A DNA stretch of 38,889 nucleotides, taken from positions 1 to 38,889 of the forward strand of contig JAPHEE010000016.1 in assembly GCA_029259545.1 (NCBI GenBank). The letters are read 5' to 3'. The notes under the pieces were generated by a model. The model did no database searches and was not told the DNA's origin. It saw only the letters and a program-made list of their open reading frames with translations. This document shows positions 1,706 to 29,937 of the stretch, piece after piece; position 1 is the stretch's first letter, and each line of letters opens with the position of its first letter. This DNA is from Candidatus Alkanophaga volatiphilum (GTDB lineage Archaea > Halobacteriota > Syntropharchaeia > Alkanophagales > B39-G2). The translations under genes and the position numbers were made by a program.

Positions 1706-2452
1706 ATGAACGAGCGTGAGCTTGCCGATAGGATAGTTGATTGGATAAGGGAGAGGGTCAGGGAGGCTGGCGCCGAGGGCGTAGTCGTCGGGATGAGCGG
1801 GGGTTTGGACTCTTCGGTCACCGCCGTCCTCTGCAAGCGGGCGTTTCCGGATGCGACGCTGGGCTTGATCATGCCGTGCTTCAGCGACCCGAAGGACGTG
1901 GCGCATGCGAGGCTCGTCGCCGAGAAGTTCGACATCGAGACCCGGACGATCGACCTCTCACCGGTCTTCGCAATGCTGTTCAGGACGTTAGAGTCCCGTG
2001 AGTACGGCGGCGAAGCCGACGTTGCGGCGGCGAACCTGAAGCCACGGCTCCGGATGGTCGTCCTCTACTACTTCGCAAACAAGCTGAACCGCATCGTCGT
2101 CGGCACCGGGAACAAGAGCGAGCTTATGATCGGGTACTTCACGAAGTACGGCGACGGCGGCGTGGACATCCTGCCGCTGGGCGGGCTCCTGAAGACAGAG
2201 GTGCGGCGGCTCGCACGGGCGCTCGGAATCCCGCAGGAAATCATCGAGAAGCCGCCGTCCGCAGGTCTCTGGGCGGGGCAGACCGACGAGGGCGAGATCG
2301 GGATGAGCTATGAGACGCTCGACAGAATATTGGCGGCGTTGGAAAGCGGCGACCTCTCAGGATGTGACGAAGACGAGGTGCGACGAGTACAAAAAATGAT
2401 CGAGCGAGCGAGGCACAAAAGGGAAAGCCCGCCGGTGTTTGAGGTCAGGTGA
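1706..2452 (+). CDS. nadE: NAD+ synthetase
   Basis: SGGLDSS P-loop (GMSGGLDSSVTAVL), GTGNKSELMIGYFTKYGDGGVDILPLGGLLKTEVR, PSAGLWAGQTDEGEIG. Confidence 0.95.
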   Translation: MNERELADRIVDWIRERVREAGAEGVVVGMSGGLDSSVTAVLCKRAFPDATLGLIMPCFSDPKDVAHARLVAEKFDIETRTIDLSPVFAMLFRTLESREYGGEADVAAANLKPRLRMVVLYYFANKLNRIVVGTGNKSELMIGYFTKYGDGGVDILPLGGLLKTEVRRLARALGIPQEIIEKPPSAGLWAGQTDEGEIGMSYETLDRILAALESGDLSGCDEDEVRRVQKMIERARHKRESPPVFEVR

Positions 2453-2485
2453 TAGCATTAAATCGCTGTAATCGGATTAATCGGC

Positions 2486-3739
2486 TTACAGCCCATGAGC
2501 GATTAGCAATTTCCTGACGGCGTCGGCGTCCGCCTCAACCTCGACGGGCGGCTCGCACGCCTTCAGCACCGCTTCGGGGTCCTTCAGCAGGTGTCCGGTC
2601 GTGACGCACACTACGGTTTCATCCTTTTCGACAACGCCCAGCTCCAAAAGCTTCTTCAAGCCGGCAAGCGACGCTGCGCTCGCAGGCTCCACGCCGATGC
2701 CTTCGAGCCGTGCTAGTTCTTTCTGCGCCTCTATGATCTCGGCGTCGGTCACCGCCTCGGCGACGCCGCCCGACTCTCTTATGGCACGCAACGCCTTCGG
2801 CGCATTCACCGGGTTCCCGATCCTTATCGCCGACGCTATCGTCTCGGGCTGCGGCTCCGGCGTTATCTCGGCACGCCCCTCCTTTATTGCGTCAACTATC
2901 GGTCTGGCTCCGTCCGCCTGAATTCCGGTCATCTTCGGCACCTCCCCCAAAATTCCGAGCTCTCGAAGCTCGCAGAAGCCCTTGTAGATTGCGCTGATGT
3001 TCCCGGCGTTGCCCACCGGTAGGACGACCCTGTCGGGCGCACGCCAGCCCAACTGCTCGGCAATCTCGAAAGCTATGGTCTTTTGCCCCTCTAAGCGATA
3101 GGGATTGACGGAGTTGAGCAGGTAGATGCGAAGCTCCTCGCAGAGCTCCCTGACGATGCGGAGGGCGTCGTCGAAATTCCCGTCGATCGCAACGACCCTC
3201 GCACCGTGCATCACGGCTTGTGCGACCTTGCCCAGCGCCACCTTCCCCTTAGGAAGGAGCACGAAGCAAGGAATTCCCGCACGAGCCGCATAGATGGCGA
3301 GCGATGCCGACGTGTTTCCCGTGGAGGCGCACGCCACCCTCGTCATCTTCAACTCCAGCGCCTTCGTTACGCCGACGGTCATGCCCCGGTCCTTGAACGA
3401 GCCTGTGGGGTTGAGCCCCTCATGCTTCACGTAAAGCTCCCTCATCCCAAGCTTTTCCGCAAGCCGCTCGCATTTGTAAAGCGGCGTGTTCCCTTCCCTC
3501 GTGGTCACCGGCGCAAGCGTGCCGCCCTCGCCTTTAAGCTTGAGAATCCCGTCCTCGAAGGGCAGCAACGCCCTGTATTTCCAGACGCCGAGTTCGCCGC
3601 CCCTCGTTATGCTCGCAGCGTCCACGGTCGAGTACTCGTACTTAACGTCGAGAAGCCCGCCGCACTCGCAGGTATAGACGACATCGTCACGCTCGTAGCG
3701 GGCGCCGCACCTCATGCACTCGACGTGATATTCGGGCAT
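2486..3739 (-). CDS. thrC: Threonine synthase
   Basis: N-terminal zinc ribbon (CMRCGARY...CECGG), PLP motif HEGLNPTGSFKDRGMTVGV, ACASTGNTSASLA. Confidence 0.95.
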   Translation of the reverse strand: MPEYHVECMRCGARYERDDVVYTCECGGLLDVKYEYSTVDAASITRGGELGVWKYRALLPFEDGILKLKGEGGTLAPVTTREGNTPLYKCERLAEKLGMRELYVKHEGLNPTGSFKDRGMTVGVTKALELKMTRVACASTGNTSASLAIYAARAGIPCFVLLPKGKVALGKVAQAVMHGARVVAIDGNFDDALRIVRELCEELRIYLLNSVNPYRLEGQKTIAFEIAEQLGWRAPDRVVLPVGNAGNISAIYKGFCELRELGILGEVPKMTGIQADGARPIVDAIKEGRAEITPEPQPETIASAIRIGNPVNAPKALRAIRESGGVAEAVTDAEIIEAQKELARLEGIGVEPASAASLAGLKKLLELGVVEKDETVVCVTTGHLLKDPEAVLKACEPPVEVEADADAVRKLLIAHGL

Positions 3740-3788
3740 CGCTTCAAGTTAGGTCGGGCTTTTTAAGGACACTTTCCAACCGATACCC

Positions 3789-4334
3789 ATGGCAGGAAAG
3801 ATAAACCTTTCAGAACTGCCGAGGGAAACCCTGATCTCACTCATTGAGATGTATTCGGGGCTGTCCCTGACGCTGGACGGCTTGTGGTTCACCGCCGTAG
3901 AAGATGAGTTCGGCTTGGAGGAGGCGGTGAAGACCGACGAAATAGTATGGGGAAGATACGGCGAGATAGAAGCACGACGCATAATAAAAACCCTTAACAT
4001 AAGCGAGAGCGGGCTGGACGCCTTAGCCAATGCTCTTAACTTCATGGTGTGGGTCCATGCGAGGGGCATGGACTGCGAGATCGAGCTTGAGCGCGAGGAC
4101 GCCGCCATCGTCTTCACGGTGACGGACTGCCGCCCGCAGAAGGCGAGGATCAGGAGCGGCAGGGGCGAATTCCCGTGCAAGCCGGTGGGCATCGCATACT
4201 TTTCGAAGTTTGCAAAGGCGATAGACCCGGAGATAGAAGTGGAGTGCGTCGTGTGCCCGCCGGACCCGCACCCTGAAAACGTCTGGTGCCGATGGAAGTT
4301 CAGAAAGAGAGAATCCAAACGATCGGAGACGTGA
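3789..4334 (+). CDS. Uncharacterised conserved protein (DUF6125-like)
   Basis: Complete 181-aa ORF with coherent codon usage; LPRETLISLIEMYSGLSLTLDGLWFTAVEDEFG resembles DUF6125-type archaeal proteins (family assignment from memory). Confidence 0.7.
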   Translation: MAGKINLSELPRETLISLIEMYSGLSLTLDGLWFTAVEDEFGLEEAVKTDEIVWGRYGEIEARRIIKTLNISESGLDALANALNFMVWVHARGMDCEIELEREDAAIVFTVTDCRPQKARIRSGRGEFPCKPVGIAYFSKFAKAIDPEIEVECVVCPPDPHPENVWCRWKFRKRESKRSET

Positions 4335-4970: not shown

Positions 4971-5771
4971 TCAGGGCATCTGGCTCGTCAGATGCCCGAC
5001 GAGCACCCACGCCACGAGCGTGCAAGCCCTTGCGATTTCGTTCGTAGCGCCCATGACGTCGCCGCTGACGCCGCCGAAGTTCTTCGCCGCCGCTCTTGCG
5101 ACGAGAGCTGCTACGGGAGCGCCAAGTAGCGTTAGGAAGGCTTTACCGCCGCATAACCGGAGTAAAAAAGCAGCAATTGCCACAGAAACGACGACTGCGA
5201 TTGCGTACTTCTGCGGCGTGAGTCTCGACGTGAAAAGGGCGCCCAGTCCCGCTGCCGCCGCCGGCGTCCTAACGAGTCTGCCCGCAAAGATGCAGGTGGT
5301 CATGCCGAGCTTCGCCGACGTCTCCGCAACAACCAAGGCTGCGAAGATGCTGAGAAACGCCGCCGTGTAGTTCGTGACGCCGTGAGCCGCCGCCCCTGCG
5401 CATACGTCCAAAAATGCGACGAACTCCGCAAGCAGCACGACAAAAACGGCGAAGACGCCGGCGGCGCCCACGGCTCCGTCCTTCATCGCCTTTACTTTCT
5501 GCTCGACGCCGCCGCTTGCGAAAAGCCCGTCGGAGAAGTCCGCAAGCCCGTCAAGATGCATCAAGCCCGTTGTTGCGTATAAAGCAAGCAGAGTCAGGAG
5601 CGCCGCAACCTCTGGACTCAAGAAGGACGCCAGAAAGCTGACTGCGGCGACGAACACGCTTATCAGAACCGCAAGCACGGGGTATAAAAAGCTCTGCTCC
5701 GCCGCCCTTTCGAGGTCGCCGCCCCTCACCCCCACCGGCAACCTCGTGGAAAACGCTATTAAATCTCGCAT
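4971..5771 (-). CDS. cobS: Adenosylcobinamide-GDP ribazoletransferase (cobalamin synthase)
   Basis: Multi-TM; FSTRLPVG, GLMHLDGLADFSDGLFASGG, MKDGAVGAAGVFA motifs. Confidence 0.92.
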   Translation of the reverse strand: MRDLIAFSTRLPVGVRGGDLERAAEQSFLYPVLAVLISVFVAAVSFLASFLSPEVAALLTLLALYATTGLMHLDGLADFSDGLFASGGVEQKVKAMKDGAVGAAGVFAVFVVLLAEFVAFLDVCAGAAAHGVTNYTAAFLSIFAALVVAETSAKLGMTTCIFAGRLVRTPAAAAGLGALFTSRLTPQKYAIAVVVSVAIAAFLLRLCGGKAFLTLLGAPVAALVARAAAKNFGGVSGDVMGATNEIARACTLVAWVLVGHLTSQMP

Positions 5772-5773
5772 CG

Positions 5774-6841
5774 CTACGTCCCATCCGACTCGAAGCCGCC
5801 TCTCAGCTCCAAAAGCTCGAAAAGCTTCGTCATGCAGCCCGCTATGAAGCCCCCGACCGCATCGTCGAGGAACGGCGGCAGCTCCTTCAGAATGCCGGGC
5901 TTCCTCGTGTCGTAATACACGAAGTTGAACAACGCCTTCTTCCCGCCTATGTATTCGGCAATATCAATCCCTATGAGCTCGTCAGCGAGTAGATCGACAG
6001 GGTCGCCCCTCAAGCCCCGCCGCTTCCGAGCCTCCTCCTCTAGGAAGAACGCCGACGACATGAGCAGAGCCACGTTTATATCCTCGCACTCCCTTTTCAT
6101 CAACCTCTCCAGCTCCTCCCTCACAAGCTCCCTCGGCAGCTCGCCAACGTAAAGCTCTAACGCCGCATCCAAAATCGCATCAAACGAAATCCCCCGCTCT
6201 TCAAGCCTTTTCAGAATTGAACGCTCCTTAGGAGCATTTCTTTCTTTAACAAAAGCCTTTTCGACCGCCTCCCGCACGCACTCGTAAATCTCACTGCCTA
6301 TCTCGGTGAGGACGCCTGCGTATTTGTGCGGTGTGCTCTTATCCACGTCGCCGCCGGGGCATGCGATGACGACGGCGTCCGTCGGCGTGCCCGTGATCAC
6401 GCTTCCATCCCTGCTCAGCTCGGAATAACGGACGTCGAGGTCTCTCAACGCCGCAGCCTTCGCCTCCGTCGCCACGATTATCGCATTCGCCATCGCCGCC
6501 GCCGTCATTCTCTCTGCGACAACGACGATGACGTTGATCGTGCAGCCCGCAGTTGCCACAACTAAAACCTTGTCCCGAGCCACGACCTCAGCGTTCTCCA
6601 TCGAGGCGGCGGTGAGCAGCCCGACCACGTCCGCAGGCTCGTAACCCTCCTCTTTGAGGAAGCGCAGGTAGAAAGTTTCAGCGTCCTCGTCGAAGTCGTG
6701 CGGCACGTGCACGTTGAGAATCCGCCTTGCACGCCGCAAACCGCCGTTGAACGGCGCCGAACTCAGAACTTCGAAGCCTGACCGTAGCGTGCTCCGCACC
6801 TCAATGTAGCGTCCCTTGTTCACCACCTCCACGCCCCGCAT
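5774..6841 (-). CDS. Adenosylcobinamide amidohydrolase (CbiZ) fused to CobZ/PgpA-like alpha-ribazole phosphatase
   Basis: N-term CbiZ-like (LSSAPFNGGLRRARRILNVHVP...VGLLTAASMENA); C-term CobZ/PgpA-like (DELIGIDIAEYIGGKKALFNFVYYDTRKPGILKELPPFLDDAVGGFIAGCMTK). Directly upstream of cobS on the same strand. Confidence 0.85.
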   Translation of the reverse strand: MRGVEVVNKGRYIEVRSTLRSGFEVLSSAPFNGGLRRARRILNVHVPHDFDEDAETFYLRFLKEEGYEPADVVGLLTAASMENAEVVARDKVLVVATAGCTINVIVVVAERMTAAAMANAIIVATEAKAAALRDLDVRYSELSRDGSVITGTPTDAVVIACPGGDVDKSTPHKYAGVLTEIGSEIYECVREAVEKAFVKERNAPKERSILKRLEERGISFDAILDAALELYVGELPRELVREELERLMKRECEDINVALLMSSAFFLEEEARKRRGLRGDPVDLLADELIGIDIAEYIGGKKALFNFVYYDTRKPGILKELPPFLDDAVGGFIAGCMTKLFELLELRGGFESDGT

Positions 6842-7656
6842 ACCGGAAGTTACGCCGCCGTCGTAAAAACGTTTTGTGCAGCATCCCCGCGTCTAGCTCA
6901 GCAATGCAGCTGAACGGCACTCCTTATCTTCCCGTTGCTTGCAAGACATGCGTAAGCGTGGGTAGCAGGGGAAGGAGAGTTGTTTAGGTTGACTATATCT
7001 AAGGACGGAACGTTTCCGATGGGAGGAGCTGAACAACGTAGCAGTCCGGTGGGAAAACTTGCAAAGCCCGACCGGAAGAAACTCACCGAAGGCGTAGAAT
7101 GGAAACCCAAGGTCAACCCCTGCTGGAGGCGGGCGGCTTACCGGCGGGCGTTCGCCTCGCTATGACCGTCGCTACGACCGCGTTCGCCGCTCCTCGCCCC
7201 AGCTCGTGCGTCGGCGAGCAGCACGCCGCATCGCCCCGCTCGGAACGCCACCGCCCACGAACCGAGCCGAGCTGAGACTGAGGCGTCGCCGTGCCCCACG
7301 TCGCAAGTCCTACAACTCCTTAGGCTCGCCGGAAAATCTTGCGGCAACATACGCTGCGCACTCCTTGCTACGATTCCCCCTCCAATCACCCTCACCCCCG
7401 AAAAGAAGTCGTGCGACGCTGCGATGAATCCCACGCCGTGTTGACAAATGCCGTCGTTTTGCCCACGCAGCGGCGTCGCTCCCGCTCAGGGAAGGCTCGG
7501 GATGCGCATCGGATCCTCACAGTAGGAAATGAGCTGCCGACTTTATATCGGAAAGCGTGAGTTAAACTTATATGTCACCAACTTCAAACGGCAAACAGTA
7601 TCCGACAATGGAGGCGCGCTGCGTCGCCTCGTGCCAACCCGGAATGAGGCGAGAAG

Positions 7657-18618: not shown

Positions 18619-19989
18619 TTGGAAATGAGATGGAAAATGGGCAGTGGACAGAAACAACTAATAAATCAACAGCAAACATCGTGTACGGAACAGACTACAA
18701 TGGCGAAAATTTATCCGCCGAATTCTGTGAGGAGAAGACTTAAAGCCAAATTTGAAGATAAGATGCGTGAAGAACTAAGATTAAGTTCTTCTGTGTCCTA
18801 CGTTGGCAATAAGAGAGTTCCCTTCTTAAGGATTTATAGATATAAAGAGGCATTTGCCTTTAGTTTCGTTAAAGACTTTCTTAATAGATTTGACGCAGAT
18901 TTCAATGACTATGTGTTTGATCCATTCTCCGGCCTTGGTACAACTATGTTCGCTTCCATGCTTTCCGGCATTCCATCAATAGGTATTGACAAATTGCCAG
19001 TTGCTTACTTCATATCAAAGACACTTCCTTTATTCTTGTTTCTAAGAGAGAATGAAGTAAAAGAAACGTGGGAGTCGATTAAACCACGAATAGAAAAGAG
19101 CGAGCCAGCAGAGGTGGCAACGGATGTTCCCATCATGCAGGTTGCGTTTAGCGAGCAAAATCTTTTGCTCCTGAGAAAATTAAAATCTGCGATCGACGAG
19201 CTTCCTGAACCTTGTAGGGATATTTTCCTTTTCCTTTTCTTTTCAATTCTTGAAGAATGCAGTTTCACCTCAAAGGACGGTCAGTTTCTGAGACTTAAAC
19301 GAAATAAAAGAGTATCCAATCCTATTGAGGCGATGAGTAAGAAAGTATCACAGGTGGAGGAGGATGTACGTCGCATCAGGTTCCTTTATCCCGGTATATC
19401 AATTGATAAAGTTATGCCCGATGTCTATCTTGCTGACGCACGAGATTTGTCAAATATAAAATTCAGGCGAAAGCCCACAATTATAATCACATCCCCGCCT
19501 TATGCCAATAGATACGACTATACAAGGACTTACTCTTTGGAATTATGTTTCCATTTTGTGAAGAACTTTGAGGAGCTTAAGGCTATTCGTTTTGGAATTC
19601 TGAGATCCCACATAGAGTCGAAAATAAAAAAGGATGAAAAGCCACCGCACCCGGCGGTAGAAGAAGTAGTCGCCGCCCTTTCAAGAAAGAAATTAAATAA
19701 CCCCAAGATACCTGACATGATTACCGCCTATTTTATTGATATGCAGCAAGTCATAAAGGAATGGTATAAGGTTTTAGCCTCCGGTGCAAAAGTGGCTATG
19801 GTAGTCGATAATGTTAGATTTGAAGGGGAGATGATACCTGTTGATCTAATTCTTTCTGAAATGGCTGAAGAAATAGGGTTTGAGGTTAAAGAGATCATCA
19901 TAGCCCGCTATAAGGGGAACAGCTCTCAACAAATGAAAAAATATGGGAGAGTCCCCGTTAGAGAAAGCATCGTGGTATGGGAAAGGTGA
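18619..19989 (+). CDS. Site-specific DNA methyltransferase (probable N4-cytosine/beta-group-like)
   Basis: SAM-binding DPFSGLGTTMFAS and catalytic TSPPYANRYDYTRTYSLELCF motifs; 5 bp upstream of the putative REase start. Confidence 0.88.
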   Translation: MEMRWKMGSGQKQLINQQQTSCTEQTTMAKIYPPNSVRRRLKAKFEDKMREELRLSSSVSYVGNKRVPFLRIYRYKEAFAFSFVKDFLNRFDADFNDYVFDPFSGLGTTMFASMLSGIPSIGIDKLPVAYFISKTLPLFLFLRENEVKETWESIKPRIEKSEPAEVATDVPIMQVAFSEQNLLLLRKLKSAIDELPEPCRDIFLFLFFSILEECSFTSKDGQFLRLKRNKRVSNPIEAMSKKVSQVEEDVRRIRFLYPGISIDKVMPDVYLADARDLSNIKFRRKPTIIITSPPYANRYDYTRTYSLELCFHFVKNFEELKAIRFGILRSHIESKIKKDEKPPHPAVEEVVAALSRKKLNNPKIPDMITAYFIDMQQVIKEWYKVLASGAKVAMVVDNVRFEGEMIPVDLILSEMAEEIGFEVKEIIIARYKGNSSQQMKKYGRVPVRESIVVWER

Positions 19990-19994
19990 TCAAG

Positions 19995-20938
19995 ATGCCG
20001 TCTGATAGAGAAAAGGAAAGTTGGACGATCGATCAGATTACTAAGAGCGAGTTTTTCCACCAAAACTTCATGAATGGGGTCTATTAGAAATTGCTTACGA
20101 GCTTGAATCTATAAAAGGAGAAGAATTCAAATGGGACTTAAACGAATTAAATATAAGCCAAAAAGCTTGGGATAAGGTTATCCACAGAGGAATTAAGCCT
20201 GTGAGGGTATTTAGCCATCCCGAGGTTTTAAAGGGCAATCCAAAAAGAGTGAGCTACTACAGGATGCTTGCGATGGTCTCCCAAAAGTCGATGTCAAAAG
20301 TCGGCTTGCCTGTTCATGATTATGAAGATGGACGAAAAAGTTTTGATGACGATATGGCTGTAGAGATTTCAAAGCATCTGAACAGAATTATAAGCATTCT
20401 TATAGAGCATGATGAGGATATAGATGCAAGAGAATTTGATTTGTGGCGTGGGATGGCTGCTGGCTCTCAAGCCCAAGGCTCGTGGCAAAATACGAAAGGC
20501 GATCGAGCTGAAGTCGTCATCAAGGAGTTGATCGAAAGGAGAGTCAGAGAAAGAAGGTTGGTAATTAAAGAAACCACTCATGGAAGGAGCAAAAAGAAGC
20601 TGGAGTTAAAGGATGGGCGGATATTAGTAATGGGTAGTGAGCCGGACATTGGGATATACAAAAACAATGCGATTCAAATTGCCGTTGAAATAAAAGGCGG
20701 TATTGACCCAGCGGGGATACTTGAACGATTTGGGGCGGCGTTAAAGAGTTTAAGAAGAGCGAAGCAGGAAAACTCCAGATCAATCACTATATTGATTATG
20801 CAAGCTGTATCTCTAACCCCCAAAGCGAAAGAAGAAATTGACAGGAGTAAGGCAACCATAGACCACTTCTTTACGATAGAAGATGTAATAGGTAATGAAG
20901 ATTCAAGGAAGCAATTGTTTGAGGTGCTGAATATATGA
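19995..20938 (+). CDS. Putative type II restriction endonuclease (XcyI-family-like), apparent -1 frameshift at T-run 20052-20056
   Basis: ATG at 19995 gives MPSDREKESWTIDQITKSEFF; adding one T to the T5 run joins it to PPKLHEWGLLEIAYELESIKGEEFKWDLNELNISQKAWDKVIHRGIKPVRVFSHPEVLKG..., continuous with track ORF 20201-20938. C-term EPDIGIYKNNAIQIAVEIKGG is a PD-(D/E)XK-like core. XcyI assignment from memory. Confidence 0.7.
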
Positions 20939-24845: not shown

Positions 24846-26570
24846 ATGGCGGTCCGCGAGCTAACAATCGAGCCTATCACGAGAATTGAAGGGCATCTTG
24901 GCGCTCACGTCAAAATTGACACCGACGCCAGAAAGATAACGGACGCTTATGTCTACAGTCCGATGTTCAGGGGCTTTGAAATAATTTTGCAGGGAAGAGA
25001 GCCGTCCGAAGCGATCATGATCACGCAGCGCTCCTGCGGAGTCTGTCCGGTGCCGCATGCATACTCGTCGGCAATGGCGGTCGACCAGACGTATAAGGTG
25101 TCGCCTCCACCTATGGCGGTCGCGCTCAGAACGCTCGTCCACGGCGCAGAGCAGCTTTATGATTCCGAAGTCGGCGTCGTGAACCTCGAAGGCTGCGACT
25201 ACAGCGAGACGCTCGTGAAGAAGTTCAATCCGGACTGGTGGGAGGAGGCTGAGAAGACAAAAGCTGAAAGGGCGGACATCCATGGCTACGAAAAGATTTC
25301 AGACATTATGAGAGCACTTAACCCGTTCACTGGCGAGCTTTACGTCCAGTCGCTGCTGATGCAGAAAAATGGACACAACATGGCGGCGATCTTCGGAGCG
25401 AAGCACCCGCACGTGCACTCTTTCGTGCCGGGTGGGATTTCAAAGGCGAACTTGTCACCGTCGGACTTCGAGGCTTACATCACGCTCCTGACGAGGCACG
25501 TAGCATTCTCGAAGAAGCTTGTGGCGGCGACCGATGACCTTCTCGACTTCGTGCTCGAGCAGGGTTATGAGGAGGTGGGTACAAGGGAGGCAAATCTCCT
25601 CTCCGTCGGCGCTTACGACGACCCCGAACAATACTCGGCGGAGTATTCTGACATCGGTAAGTTTGGGAAAGCCCGCCTCGTATCTCCCGGCGTGATTCTC
25701 AACGGGGAACTTGTGACGACCGACCTAATTGAGATCAATGTTGGCGTCAGGGAGTTCATCGGGCGCGGCTGGTATGAGGACGACTGGGAGCAAGAGTTCA
25801 GCACCGATCCGCTCGGGAACAAAATTGAGAGGGAACATCCATGGAACAAGCGGACGAAGCCTAAACCTGGGAAGTATGGAGATTGGGCTTCAGCCTATTC
25901 TTGGGTAACTGCTTCCCGCTGGCTCAAGGACGGGAAGAACCACGTCGTCGAACTTGGACCGCTTGCGAGGATGTGGGTCACGGCGAAGGCGAAGCTCGTG
26001 CCGGAGTCCACAGGAAACAGCTTGCGGTTCGAGCTTCCTGCATCGCCGGTCCCTGGACTCCCTGCTGAGAAGCTTGAGTTGGAGTGGAAGATCCCAAAGA
26101 AGCCCAACGCCGTCGAGAGGGTCAGGGCAAGAGCTTATTACAATGCCTACACTGCATACTGCATGCTGAAAACGGTGGAGAAAGGTCTGGAGCTGCTGAA
26201 AGCCGGGAAGGCGGAGGTCTGGACGGAATACAAGCGTCCGAAAGAGGGTATAGGCTTCGGCGCCATTGAGGCGATGCGAGGTGCTTGCATGCACTGGTGC
26301 GTCATGAAGAAGGGCAAAATCCACAATTACCAGTATCATGCACCGTCATCATGGAACCTCTCCTGCAGAGACCCTGAGGATCAACCGGGACCTGTAGAAG
26401 CTGCTCTGCTCCAGACGCCGATCACCGAAGTTGGCGACGCCGCCGCGTGGAAAGGCATCGACATCGTCCGTGTCATCAGAAGCTTCGACCCGTGCCTCGG
26501 GTGCGCCGTCCACATCCACGTCGGAAACAGGGTCGTGAAGCACGAGCTTCTACCTTATCCTTCCCCTTAA
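24846..26570 (+). CDS. [NiFe] hydrogenase large subunit
   Basis: L1 motif RSCGVCPVPH and L2 motif DPCLGCAVH with C-terminal extension IHVGNRVVKHELLPYPSP. Track start 24837; ATG at 24846 after AAGGAGGTGGT is preferred. Confidence 0.95.
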   Translation: MAVRELTIEPITRIEGHLGAHVKIDTDARKITDAYVYSPMFRGFEIILQGREPSEAIMITQRSCGVCPVPHAYSSAMAVDQTYKVSPPPMAVALRTLVHGAEQLYDSEVGVVNLEGCDYSETLVKKFNPDWWEEAEKTKAERADIHGYEKISDIMRALNPFTGELYVQSLLMQKNGHNMAAIFGAKHPHVHSFVPGGISKANLSPSDFEAYITLLTRHVAFSKKLVAATDDLLDFVLEQGYEEVGTREANLLSVGAYDDPEQYSAEYSDIGKFGKARLVSPGVILNGELVTTDLIEINVGVREFIGRGWYEDDWEQEFSTDPLGNKIEREHPWNKRTKPKPGKYGDWASAYSWVTASRWLKDGKNHVVELGPLARMWVTAKAKLVPESTGNSLRFELPASPVPGLPAEKLELEWKIPKKPNAVERVRARAYYNAYTAYCMLKTVEKGLELLKAGKAEVWTEYKRPKEGIGFGAIEAMRGACMHWCVMKKGKIHNYQYHAPSSWNLSCRDPEDQPGPVEAALLQTPITEVGDAAAWKGIDIVRVIRSFDPCLGCAVHIHVGNRVVKHELLPYPSP

Positions 26571-27049
26571 TTTTCCGCACTTTTATCTCCAGCAAGAAAT
26601 TCAAGAATGAGCTTTACTGCATTTCCGATGGCTTCTTCTACTTTTTTGCTCAATCCCTCCCCTAATTCCACCCTTTCAACTTCGCAACCAACTACGACGA
26701 CTTTTCTAGGGAGCGTGCCGATGGCTTTCGCCGTAATAATAATCTCTTCAACGCCCGTCTGATGGAGGCTTAGCTTTGCTGTTAAGTTTCCCACCCTTGT
26801 TTCCACGTCGCCGGCGGTAATTTCCAAAACGTAAAGCGTCCCTGGCTCCCCGCCAGTTTTAACGGCATCCACAAAAATAACAAGGTCGTAATCCGCGAGG
26901 TCCGGCGCCAAGGTCACGTCGCAGAGTCCTACGTCCCTCAGTTCGACGTTCTCAGGCAGCTTTAACTTCGTAAGCTCCTCGATGACTCTCGGACCAAAGC
27001 CATCGTCGCTCATGAACTTGTTGCCGAAACCCGCGATTAAAACTCTCAT
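26567..27049 (-). CDS. Hydrogenase maturation protease
   Basis: GFGNKFMSDDGFGPRVIEEL, YDLVIFVDAVKTGGEPGTLYVLE, SLHQTGVEEII; convergent with the large-subunit gene, stops overlapping by 4 bp. Confidence 0.92.
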   Translation of the reverse strand: MRVLIAGFGNKFMSDDGFGPRVIEELTKLKLPENVELRDVGLCDVTLAPDLADYDLVIFVDAVKTGGEPGTLYVLEITAGDVETRVGNLTAKLSLHQTGVEEIIITAKAIGTLPRKVVVVGCEVERVELGEGLSKKVEEAIGNAVKLILEFLAGDKSAEN

Positions 27050-27050
27050 C

Positions 27051-28076
27051 TCAACTCAAAATGCGCTCAGCTCGCCTTGCGACCGCATCTGCCATTTCAC
27101 TGAGCTTAGCGCTCCCGCCGAGGTCGTATGTAACCGTCTTGCTCTCAGCTATGACCTCTTCCACAGCCCTCCTTATGACCGTTGCCTTCTCACCCTCTCC
27201 CAGATATTCAAGGAGCCATGCGCTTGCAAGGATCATGGCTGTCGGGTTCACCTTATCAAGTCCGGCGTACTTCGGCGCAGACCCGTGAGCAGGCTCGAAC
27301 ATCGCGTAGTCGTCGCCGATGTTCGCCGAAGGTATGAGCCCGATGCTGCCGACGAGCGCCGAGCACTCCTCACTTATTATGTCCATAAATAGGTTCGTAG
27401 AAAGTAAGACGGTCTCATTGAAAATCTGTGGGTTTTTGATGAGCTGCTGCGCAATGTTGTCGACGTGATATTCCCAAAGTTCGATTTCAGGGTACTCCTC
27501 CGCAACTTTACGCGCCTCCTCGACGAAGGCGCCGCAGGTCCTCTTCAAGATGTTGCTTTTGTGAATGGCGACAACCGCCTTGAACTTGCGGCGGCGAGCC
27601 TCCTCGAAGGCAAATTTTGCGATGCGATGGCACTGTCGCCTCGTGATCTTACGGAGTGCGAGGATGACATCGTCGCTCACCGGTATTTCTACGCCGAAGT
27701 ACAGCCCCTCGGTCGCCTCACGCACGCACACGAAGTCTACGTCGCCGAGCGGTCTCCTCGTCCCCTCAAAGGTCTTTATAGGGCGGACGTTGGCGTAGAG
27801 GTCGAAGTGCTGCCTTATGGAAACGGCAACGCTCTTTGGCGAGCCCTCGCCGCCAGGCGTCGTTGTAGGACCCTTGAGGCACGCATCCGCCTCCTCCAAG
27901 ACGTCCCACGTCTCCTCGGGGATCAATGAGTCGCCACCATGCTCCTGCCACCAGTCGTAGCCGGCGTCGCAGAAAAGCCACTCCACGTCAGGCTCGACGA
28001 CCCCTAAAACCTTGAAGGCGGCATCCACCACCTCGGGACCGACGCCGTCGCCCCTGATCACGGCTACCTTCTTCAT
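27051..28076 (-). CDS. Isocitrate/isopropylmalate dehydrogenase family protein
   Basis: VIRGDGVGPEVVDAA, REATEGLYFGVE, KSNILKRTCGAF, VDNIAQQLI, GSIGLIPSANIGDDYAMFEPAHGSAPKYAGLDKVNPTAMILASAWLLEYLG. Substrate not resolvable by eye. Confidence 0.92.
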   Translation of the reverse strand: MKKVAVIRGDGVGPEVVDAAFKVLGVVEPDVEWLFCDAGYDWWQEHGGDSLIPEETWDVLEEADACLKGPTTTPGGEGSPKSVAVSIRQHFDLYANVRPIKTFEGTRRPLGDVDFVCVREATEGLYFGVEIPVSDDVILALRKITRRQCHRIAKFAFEEARRRKFKAVVAIHKSNILKRTCGAFVEEARKVAEEYPEIELWEYHVDNIAQQLIKNPQIFNETVLLSTNLFMDIISEECSALVGSIGLIPSANIGDDYAMFEPAHGSAPKYAGLDKVNPTAMILASAWLLEYLGEGEKATVIRRAVEEVIAESKTVTYDLGGSAKLSEMADAVARRAERILS

Positions 28077-28094
28077 GACGATATGGTTAGTTTT

Positions 28095-28553
28095 CTACTT
28101 TATTTCATCCCCGCACCTGAGAAACTTAGGATTGAGTCCTTGCAGCTCCCTCCTGACTCTTGACACAGCCGTGGAATCAGCGCCGTTGTGGTAAATGACG
28201 CTCCTTACCCTCTCGTCACACGCTTGGCTCAATCGCCTCAAGGACTCAAGGCACTTCTTCACCTGCTTCACTTTGTCGCGGGCGTCGTGGTTACTAAGCC
28301 TTCCGCTCGTGCATTCGACGATGCAAACCCTGTCCTCAAACACTAGAACAAGATCGCAACCTCCCCTCTCCCCGGAAAGACGCTCATCCGCGCAGCAGTC
28401 GAATTTAACCTTCATGACGCAGCTCGACGCTTTAACCTTACAACCGTCCACGTTCCAAGTCCGAACCCGTCCCGATCCTATTTCCTCGATGCACTCCTCG
28501 CCGCCTCTTTCCCGCAGGCGGTCCATCAGCTCACGTATCTCCTCGGCGACCAT
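28095..28553 (-). CDS. Hypothetical protein, PD-(D/E)XK-like candidate, partner of upstream ATPase
   Basis: GGCDLVLVFEDRVCIVECTSGRLSNHDARDKVKQVKKCLESLRR resembles a D-Xn-E-x-T nuclease-like core; start overlaps the 3' end of the ATPase gene by 23 bp. Confidence 0.7.
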   Translation of the reverse strand: MVAEEIRELMDRLRERGGEECIEEIGSGRVRTWNVDGCKVKASSCVMKVKFDCCADERLSGERGGCDLVLVFEDRVCIVECTSGRLSNHDARDKVKQVKKCLESLRRLSQACDERVRSVIYHNGADSTAVSRVRRELQGLNPKFLRCGDEIK

Positions 28554-29937
28554 GCAGCTTCCTCCACCTCGCCTCCTCTATGTCGGCGTACCTGTTCGAC
28601 AGCTCCACGATGACCGACGAGAACTCCTCCTCGTCTATCCCCTCCTCGGTAACCCTCATCTCCCCGACCGTCCCATCTAGATTGAAGCGGTAAAGCTTCA
28701 GGGACCGCCAATCCAAGCCCTCATCCTCCCTGTACCCCTGCTTCCTCTTTTCATCTGCGTCCAAGGCGTTCAGCCTCACTAGGTTGCTGAGCTCGTCGAG
28801 GATGAGCGGGCTGTGCGTGGTCATCAGAACTTGGACCCCGCACATGCTCAGCATCGCTAACGCCCTCGCAATCACGGTCTGCATGTACGGGTGGGCGTGC
28901 GCCTCCGGCTCCTCGATGATCAACGCCGCCTCCTCTTCTAAGACGTAGCGCAGGTAAGCTATCAGCGGTGTGACTTCCCTTATGACGGAGTGCGCCCTCA
29001 GCGCCGGAACCTCTCCCCCCTCGCTGCTGAAGAACACCTCGGGGAACATGAAGCCCGAGCTGCGGACGGCAACCCTGCCTCTCAGCTCCCCCTCTAAAAA
29101 GTCGGCAATCTTGTTTATCTTCCCGCTTGCAGGTCTTGAGGGAGAAACGCCAGCGAGCGTGCTCAGCATCTCGTGGTCCGGTCTGTTCAGAGGCAGCCCC
29201 CTCCCGACGGGCAGGCTCCTGAGAAGGCTAGGAGCGACCCGCAAAAAGCCCGCCCTGCTGTCCGTCAACATGTGCACGGGCTGGCATGGAAAATACTCAT
29301 CCAACACGGACTGGAAAATCGAAGGTATCATTATGCCGCAGAACATATGCAGTGAATGTTCGGGAGAATTTAAGTCCTCAACAGTTTCTTCGCACAATTC
29401 CTTGCCGTCGTGCAGCAACGCCAGCTTTCTCTTTTCCCTGTAGAACCTCATTTCAAAGCGTTCCCCTTCAAAGAAGTTATCAAGCCCCTCTTGGCGTATG
29501 GAGCCGTCCTCGCAGATTTCAAGCTCGAACCCTCGGGTTCCCTCGTCGTTGCTCACCCTCAGGACGCTCCTCTTCTCGCCCCACGTGACGAGCTCGCCCA
29601 CACCCTCCACGGAGAAAGTCTCTTTAAGCCATTCCGGAAGCATTTTGACAAAAGCATATGCGTGCACCCTCATGACGTGCTCTATCAGCTCGCCCACCGC
29701 CTCCTGCGAAATTATGGTTTTTCCTTTCTTCATCTCTTCGGCAATTCTCATGAAGGCTTCGGACATGGGTATTCCTGTTCCCAGAACCTCCCAGTCGGGC
29801 TCCATACGCCTGAGCGTCCATATGAGGTAAGCGAGGTAGGACTTTCCGGTCCCGCCCGGACCGACGAACGCCGTGAGGCTGCCGAGCGTCACGTCCGCCC
29901 GCCTTACCGGACCAAAATTCTCTACTACGAACCTCAT
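28531..29937 (-). CDS. AAA/ABC-type ATPase (OLD/AAA_15-like)
   Basis: Walker A GPGGTGKS, Walker B AALIIEEPEAHAHP, switch QVLMTTHSPLILDELSNLVRL; N-term MRFVVENFGPVRRADVTLGSLTAFVGPGGTGKS. Confidence 0.88.
   Translation of the reverse strand: MRFVVENFGPVRRADVTLGSLTAFVGPGGTGKSYLAYLIWTLRRMEPDWEVLGTGIPMSEAFMRIAEEMKKGKTIISQEAVGELIEHVMRVHAYAFVKMLPEWLKETFSVEGVGELVTWGEKRSVLRVSNDEGTRGFELEICEDGSIRQEGLDNFFEGERFEMRFYREKRKLALLHDGKELCEETVEDLNSPEHSLHMFCGIMIPSIFQSVLDEYFPCQPVHMLTDSRAGFLRVAPSLLRSLPVGRGLPLNRPDHEMLSTLAGVSPSRPASGKINKIADFLEGELRGRVAVRSSGFMFPEVFFSSEGGEVPALRAHSVIREVTPLIAYLRYVLEEEAALIIEEPEAHAHPYMQTVIARALAMLSMCGVQVLMTTHSPLILDELSNLVRLNALDADEKRKQGYREDEGLDWRSLKLYRFNLDGTVGEMRVTEEGIDEEEFSSVIVELSNRYADIEEARWRKLHGRRGDT

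What the first reader, a model, noticed from the sequence alone, without database searches (positions are those of the whole stretch)
28095..29937. Two-gene ATPase + PD-(D/E)XK-like module, candidate defence system
Seen: an AAA/OLD-like ATPase (GPGGTGKS, IIEEPEAHAHP, TTHSPLI) is followed by a 152-aa protein whose start overlaps the ATPase 3' end by 23 bp, implying translational coupling. The small protein carries CDLVLVF...VCIVECTSG, reminiscent of PD-(D/E)XK-like cores. Established: OLD/AAA_15-type ATPases pair with small effectors in defence (Septu, Gabija, PARIS). Inference: this is a compact ATPase-effector pair whose effector does not match HNH (PtuB) or TOPRIM (AriB) motifs by eye.
Basis: partly seen in the sequence, partly recalled or inferred. 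Interest (0 to 1): 0.65.

Follow-up and report, generated by a model that had tools for sequence, protein, structure and literature searches.

The report
Archaeal ATPase-nuclease antiviral pair, rebuilt active site
An uncultured archaeon carries two overlapping genes, a sensor-type ATPase and a small nuclease-fold protein, that belong to a recently described bacterial anti-virus kind (WonAB/PD-T4-4); in this archaeal branch the usual catalytic lysine of the nuclease is missing, probably moved elsewhere, and the middle of the ATPase looks like an exchangeable recognition module.

Summary
A 468-aa OLD/ABC-type ATPase (29937-28531, minus) overlaps by 23 bp a 152-aa protein B (28553-28095, minus). 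B folds confidently (AlphaFold2 pLDDT 94) as a PD-(D/E)XK nuclease core; its nearest solved structures are nucleases of that superfamily (EndoMS/NucS first). The ATPase (pLDDT 91) resembles PtuA, Rad50 and OLD and has no TOPRIM domain. Homologues across archaea and bacteria keep the pair: 43 of 47 informative loci have an adjacent small ORF with the nuclease motif.

Three features I did not find described in the papers I could read: (1) archaeal members; (2) the window and Archaeoglobaceae proteins lack the canonical E-x-K lysine (E-C-T), and all eight proteins with a lysine three residues before a conserved glutamine in the next helix lack the normal one, suggesting relocation; (3) between two Archaeoglobaceae genomes at one locus, the ATPase middle has been replaced (50-70% DNA identity) while ends, nuclease and flanks stay about 90-99% identical: a swappable sensor cassette.

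Defence activity itself is inferred.

The parts
28531..29937 (-). A gene: OLD/ABC-type ATPase, 468 aa, without TOPRIM domain
   Evidence: AlphaFold2 pLDDT 90.7; Foldseek nearest PtuA, Rad50, OLD
28095..28553 (-). B gene: 152-aa PD-(D/E)XK-fold protein, predicted effector nuclease
   Evidence: pLDDT 94.4; EndoMS/NucS, BspD6I, BsoBI, Can2
28531..28553 (-). 23-bp overlap of A stop region and B start (translational coupling likely)
   Evidence: overlap or near-overlap kept in most homologous loci
29839..29862 (-). Walker A GPGGTGKS (A aa 26-33)
   Evidence: direct reading; G26, K32 invariant in 26 ATPases
28975..28992 (-). ABC-signature-like HSVIRE (A aa 316-321)
   Evidence: S317 and E321 conserved
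28897..28923 (-). Walker B LIIEEPEAH (A aa 339-347)
   Evidence: EEPE.H.HP invariant
28810..28821 (-). H-loop TTHS (A aa 373-376)
   Evidence: invariant
28948..29787 (-). variable middle of the ATPase (about aa 51-330), candidate sensor cassette
   Evidence: 16-58% identity between close relatives in aa 51-215, against 72-96% at the N and C ends
28543..28632 (-). C-terminal long helix of A (aa 436-465), candidate docking surface for B
   Evidence: aa 401-468 75-77% identical to Archaeoglobaceae; docking by analogy with WonA (PMC12137116)
28353..28358 (-). B C66-D67: conserved Cys and catalytic Asp
   Evidence: C66 26/27, D67 26/27
28308..28316 (-). B E80-C81-T82: catalytic Glu kept, canonical Lys replaced by Thr
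   Evidence: E80 27/27; position 82 K 17, T 7, L 2, S 1
28272..28274 (-). B K94: candidate relocated catalytic lysine in helix 88-108
   Evidence: K94 in 8 of 12 proteins lacking K82 and in 0 of 26 having it
28263..28265 (-). B Q97: conserved Gln in the same helix
   Evidence: 22/27

Best explanation
A two-gene antiviral (abortive-infection) system of the WonAB / PD-T4-4 kind in an archaeon. Likely working: the OLD/ABC ATPase dimerises on ATP and carries the small PD-(D/E)XK protein on its conserved C-terminal helices; the variable middle of the ATPase senses a viral molecule or activity; ATP binding or hydrolysis then lets B cut nucleic acid (for WonB probably tRNA or rRNA, since translation stops and chromosomal DNA stays intact), stopping growth before virus is made. 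Shown here: the two folds (as confident predictions), the gene overlap, the conserved pairing, intact ATPase motifs, a nuclease site lacking the usual lysine, and a swapped middle cassette. Inferred: sensing, complex formation, nuclease activity, target, defence.
For: ATPase best PADLOC match PD-T4-4_A 2e-32, PDC-M47A 6e-23; B relatives match PDC-M47B (8 of 27, best 1.6e-7 among its models 1.2e-7) and PD-T4-4_B (6 of 27, best 1.7e-5). B fold PD-(D/E)XK. ATPase fold near PtuA/Rad50/OLD, no TOPRIM. Pair kept in 43 of 47 loci from Archaea, Chloroflexota, Poribacteria, Acidobacteriota, Pseudomonadota and others. Patchy distribution with decayed copies: 4 of 5 genomes of one Archaeoglobaceae genus, 1 of 50 others in the family, remnants in G154, G016 and G019. 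Related pairs sit in phages, viral contigs and small plasmids. Cassette-like divergence of the ATPase middle. WonAB experiments: both genes, ATP motifs and WonB K71 needed; growth arrest with translation stop (PMC12137116).
Against: Canonical catalytic lysine absent, whereas WonB needs K71. The window B itself does not match the PD-T4-4_B or PDC-M47B profiles. Immediate neighbours are housekeeping genes; the nearest other defence-like genes (a type II restriction-modification pair) are about 8 kb away. An archaeal OLD protein (Cran1) was shown to act in the cell cycle, not defence (PMC12796447). No expression or infection data.
Confidence: 0.75

Rival explanations
1. The pair is a housekeeping or cell-cycle module of archaea, like the Sulfolobales OLD protein Cran1 (class 5), not a defence system.
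For: Cran1 is an archaeal OLD ATPase that is essential and cell-cycle regulated (PMC12796447); the window pair lies in a run of housekeeping genes, 18 bp from an isocitrate/isopropylmalate dehydrogenase gene on the same strand.
Against: Cran1 has its own nuclease domain and a membrane-protein operon partner; this ATPase has no TOPRIM and a PD-(D/E)XK partner. Distribution is patchy with decayed copies, so it is dispensable. The middle of the ATPase diversifies by apparent cassette exchange, unlike a housekeeping gene.
Confidence: 0.1
2. B is a catalytically dead PD-(D/E)XK relative that only regulates the ATPase or binds nucleic acid; the ATPase is the active part.
For: T replaces the catalytic K at position 82; on the tree the lysine changes at least four times, and four proteins without it have no replacement K94.
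Against: D52 (D/E), D67, E80 and Q97 all stay conserved in this clade; B is under purifying selection in Archaeoglobaceae (dN/dS 0.12-0.15 for the moderately diverged pairs); no protein has both K82 and K94.
Confidence: 0.15
3. It is a diverged Septu, Gabija or PARIS system.
For: ATPase fold closest to PtuA; AriA, GajA and PtuA profiles match the ATPase.
Against: B is PD-(D/E)XK, not HNH (PtuB), TOPRIM or helicase (GajB); ATPase has no TOPRIM; PD-T4-4_A outscores AriA, GajA and PtuA by more than 10 orders of magnitude.
Confidence: 0.03

Closest known systems
WonAB (Vibrio cholerae WASA-1 prophage; PMC12137116)
   Same: OLD-type ABC ATPase without TOPRIM, followed by a small (WonB 16.1 kDa) PD-(D/E)XK protein; C-terminal ATPase extension
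   Different: The window B lacks the E-x-K lysine (WonB K71 is essential); the host is an archaeon (WonAB reported from mainly Gram-negative bacteria). I had no WonA/WonB sequences to align directly, so residue equivalence is by motif
PD-T4-4 (E. coli ECOR collection; PADLOC PD-T4-4_A/B)
   Same: ATPase is the best profile match (2e-32); relatives of B match PD-T4-4_B
   Different: Window B does not match PD-T4-4_B at E<=1; PD-T4-4_B is larger (profile 190 aa)
'OLD-ABC ATPase + novel REase' operons (Krishnan et al. 2020, known here only through PMC12137116) and PADLOC PDC-M47
   Same: Operon layout; ATPase matches PDC-M47A (6e-23); eight relatives of B match PDC-M47B
   Different: In silico candidates only; window B not matched by the PDC-M47B profile
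Septu / retron PtuAB
   Same: ATPase fold (best Foldseek matches), ATPase-plus-small-nuclease logic
   Different: Nuclease is HNH in Septu, PD-(D/E)XK here
Cran1, archaeal class 5 OLD (PMC12796447)
   Same: Archaeal OLD-family ATPase
   Different: Own nuclease domain, membrane-protein partner, essential cell-cycle role

Membership tests
WonAB / OLD-ABC ATPase + novel REase | OLD-type ABC ATPase with Walker A, signature, Walker B, H-loop and no TOPRIM | tested here: met
WonAB / OLD-ABC ATPase + novel REase | Adjacent small protein with PD-(D/E)XK fold | tested here: met
WonAB / OLD-ABC ATPase + novel REase | Catalytic lysine of E-x-K (WonB K71) | tested here: not met
   T82 at that place; possible replacement K94. 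For this reason it is filed as a variant of the kind, not as a strict WonAB member
WonAB / OLD-ABC ATPase + novel REase | C-terminal ATPase extension that binds the nuclease | tested here: inconclusive
   Long conserved C-terminal helix present; complex could not be modelled here
WonAB / OLD-ABC ATPase + novel REase | Anti-phage growth arrest needing both genes | not testable with these tools
   needs experiment
PD-T4-4 | ATPase matches PD-T4-4_A | tested here: met
   2.2e-32, best of 132 PADLOC families
PD-T4-4 | Partner matches PD-T4-4_B | tested here: not met
   no match for the window B; 6 of 27 relatives match
Septu | HNH partner PtuB | tested here: not met
   PD-(D/E)XK fold
Gabija | TOPRIM in the ATPase protein and UvrD-like GajB partner | tested here: not met
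   no TOPRIM, partner is 152 aa
PARIS | AriB partner with TOPRIM-like fold | tested here: not met
   partner fold PD-(D/E)XK
PD-(D/E)XK superfamily | nuclease core fold with the D and E in place | tested here: met

The most novel reading that the evidence does not exclude
In this archaeal branch the effector uses a rebuilt PD-(D/E)XK site in which the catalytic lysine has moved from the E-x-K strand to the following helix (K94, one turn before conserved Q97), within a set of four conserved cysteines that may hold a metal; and the ATPase middle is a recognition cassette exchanged by recombination, so that one conserved ATPase-nuclease chassis is retargeted to different viruses.
Probability: 0.35. 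Interest if true: 0.65.

Novelty: new variant of a known kind. Interest (0 to 1): 0.48.

Why it matters
What WonAB-type ATPases sense is unknown. A natural pair of alleles that differ mainly in the ATPase middle (Archaeoglobaceae L008/L009) points to the sensing part and makes it testable by domain exchange. The archaeal members widen a system reported mainly from Gram-negative bacteria, and the lysine exchange would be a clear case of active-site relocation in a defence nuclease, one that motif-based annotation would score as dead.

Tried and rejected
Single-protein scans found almost nothing: B diverges too fast; ATPase profiles were needed. An empty site could not be shown: the only same-genus genome breaks its contig inside the neighbouring dehydrogenase gene. 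Septu, Gabija, PARIS and TOPRIM-OLD membership rejected. Card1/Can2-like identity (Pfam Card1_endonuc 0.012) rejected as membership: no CARF domain; it only reflects the shared nuclease core. Statistical proof of lysine exchange on the tree failed: only two independent contrasts show it. R85/K85 as replacement lysine rejected: not conserved in the other lineages without K82. No coordinates of the models are given out, so distances K94-E80 and between the cysteines could not be measured; cysteines as a zinc site stay a guess.

Full report
Observation. The two ORFs are exactly as described: ATPase 28531-29937 (-, 468 aa) and a 152-aa ORF 28095-28553 (-), overlapping by 23 bp. All quoted motifs are there. 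18 bp after B comes an isocitrate/isopropylmalate dehydrogenase gene (27051-28076) and 1 bp later a hydrogenase maturation protease (26567-27049), same strand; upstream, 47 bp away and divergent, is the RNase P p30 gene, then Rpp14/Pop5 and indole-3-glycerol phosphate synthase. The genome is an incomplete archaeal assembly (1.85 Mb, 88% complete). Order-level relatives include locus L004, whose B protein is identical to that of L030, a MAG labelled Methanosarcinales archaeon B64_G16.

The ATPase. Pfam AAA_15 (5e-16) and AAA_21; PADLOC best PD-T4-4_A (2e-32), then PDC-M47A (6e-23), AriA, NsnB, GajA and others lower. AlphaFold2 with 26 homologues gives pLDDT 90.7; Foldseek finds PtuA of Septu and of retrons, Rad50, SMC heads and OLD. 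Walker A, signature (S317, E321), Walker B (EEPE) and H-loop (TTHS) are intact. There is no TOPRIM domain; the protein ends in a long helix (436-465).

The partner. By sequence alone B is nearly invisible: Card1_endonuc 0.012, no PDB sequence match. With 27 homologues AlphaFold2 gives pLDDT 94.4, pTM 0.89, helix 4-17, strands 38-43, 45-50, helix 51-60, strands 68-72 and 76-81, helix 88-108, strand 116-122, which fits the PD-(D/E)XK core. Foldseek E-values are modest (best 1.4e-3) but the top ten are all PD-(D/E)XK nucleases: EndoMS/NucS and BspD6I; BsoBI and Can2 follow. ClpP matches lower in that list have TM about 0.28 and are ignored.

The pair is conserved. Profile searches found homologues in 11 of 295 genomes of the same phylum and in many archaeal and bacterial genomes. 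Of 47 informative loci (L020-L068, two excluded), 43 have a small ORF with the D...E motif starting -74 to +19 bp from the ATPase stop; 37 match the B profile at E<1e-3, about two thirds of them being training members. Related pairs occur in a Peduoviridae Vibrio phage next to its CI repressor, on small enterobacterial plasmids, and in viral contigs. Decayed copies are seen in G016, G019 and G154. In Archaeoglobaceae, B is present in 4 of 5 genomes of one genus and 1 of 50 others. Such patchiness fits defence genes.

The nuclease site. Across 27 B proteins: D/E at 52 in 27, D67 in 26, E80 in 27, Q97 in 22; cysteines C21 24, C38 26, C66 26, C147 23. The lysine of E-x-K is K in 17, T in 7, L in 2, S in 1. 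In a 38-protein set, 26 have K82 and no K94, 8 have K94 and no K82, 4 have neither, none has both. Position 94 is anchored without gaps three residues before Q97, so alignment error is unlikely. The eight belong to two lineages: window plus four Archaeoglobaceae, and L041/L047/L051 (Thermodesulfobacteriota, Bacteroidota). On the ATPase tree K82 changes at least 4 times and K94 twice; only two independent contrasts show the exchange, too few for significance. Relocation of the lysine to the helix is therefore a reasoned hypothesis, not a result. Purifying selection on B in Archaeoglobaceae (dN/dS 0.12-0.15) argues against a dead protein. That active-site residues of PD-(D/E)XK enzymes can migrate is general knowledge of mine, not checked here.

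The variable middle. L008 and L009 (two species of one Archaeoglobaceae genus, same locus) are 93-96% identical in DNA upstream and in the first ~120 nt of the ATPase, 50-70% over nt ~130-1000, then about 89-99% to the end of B and 91-97% beyond. At protein level aa 51-215 are 39% identical against 95-96% at both ends and 91% in B. The ORF stays open and homologous throughout, so this is replacement by a diverged allele; a strain mixture in a MAG could cause the junctions, but would still mean two alleles at one site. The same low-middle pattern appears in several, though not all, other pairs, and between window and Archaeoglobaceae (72-78% N end, 16-32% in aa 51-215, 75-77% C end). I read the middle as the sensor and the conserved C end as the docking place of B; both are inference.

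Known kind. WonAB of V. cholerae: OLD-ABC ATPase plus PD-(D/E)xK WonB; both genes, ATP motifs and WonB K71 needed; growth arrest with translation stop and intact genomic DNA, so tRNA or rRNA is the suspected target; predicted docking of WonB on WonA C-terminal extensions; related to PD-T4-4 and to the 'OLD-ABC ATPase + novel REase' class (PMC12137116; review PMC12409358). Homologues were reported mainly from Gram-negative bacteria. The archaeal OLD protein Cran1 is a caution (PMC12796447) but has a different build.

Verdict. A real, conserved, probably antiviral ATPase-nuclease pair; a new archaeal variant of a known kind. The altered nuclease site and the cassette-like sensor are the parts worth following.

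Noticed in passing
window 18619-20938 (+): A type II restriction-modification pair about 8 kb from the finding: N6/N4 DNA methyltransferase (18619-19989) and an XcyI-like restriction endonuclease (20201-20938), so the window holds a second defence system.
   Followed up: partly
B protein, window 28095-28553 (-): C21, C38, C66, C147: Four cysteines nearly invariant across archaeal and bacterial B proteins, one next to the catalytic Asp; possibly a zinc site. The word cysteine does not occur in the WonAB paper text.
   Followed up: partly
L008 versus L009, ATPase nt ~130-1000: Clean replacement of the ATPase middle between two closely related genomes at the same locus.
   Followed up: yes
L004/L006 (G016), L013 (G019), L014 (G154): Broken remnants of the ATPase: next to trpC in G016 and next to a prephenate-dehydrogenase-like gene in G019.
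   Followed up: partly
L102 (Vibrio phage 1.202.O), locus 2071-4102: Related ATPase plus 209-aa partner between CI repressor and a DNA breaking-rejoining enzyme gene of a P2-like phage, a typical cargo site.
   Followed up: no
L036 (Zestosphaera) 4977-6942: Archaeal ATPase with a 138-aa partner whose motif reads D...E-D-T: another variant without the E-x-K lysine, too diverged to align.
   Followed up: no
window 26567-29937 (-): A, B, dehydrogenase and hydrogenase maturation protease genes follow each other on one strand with gaps of 18 and 1 bp after B, so the pair may share a transcript with housekeeping genes.
   Followed up: no
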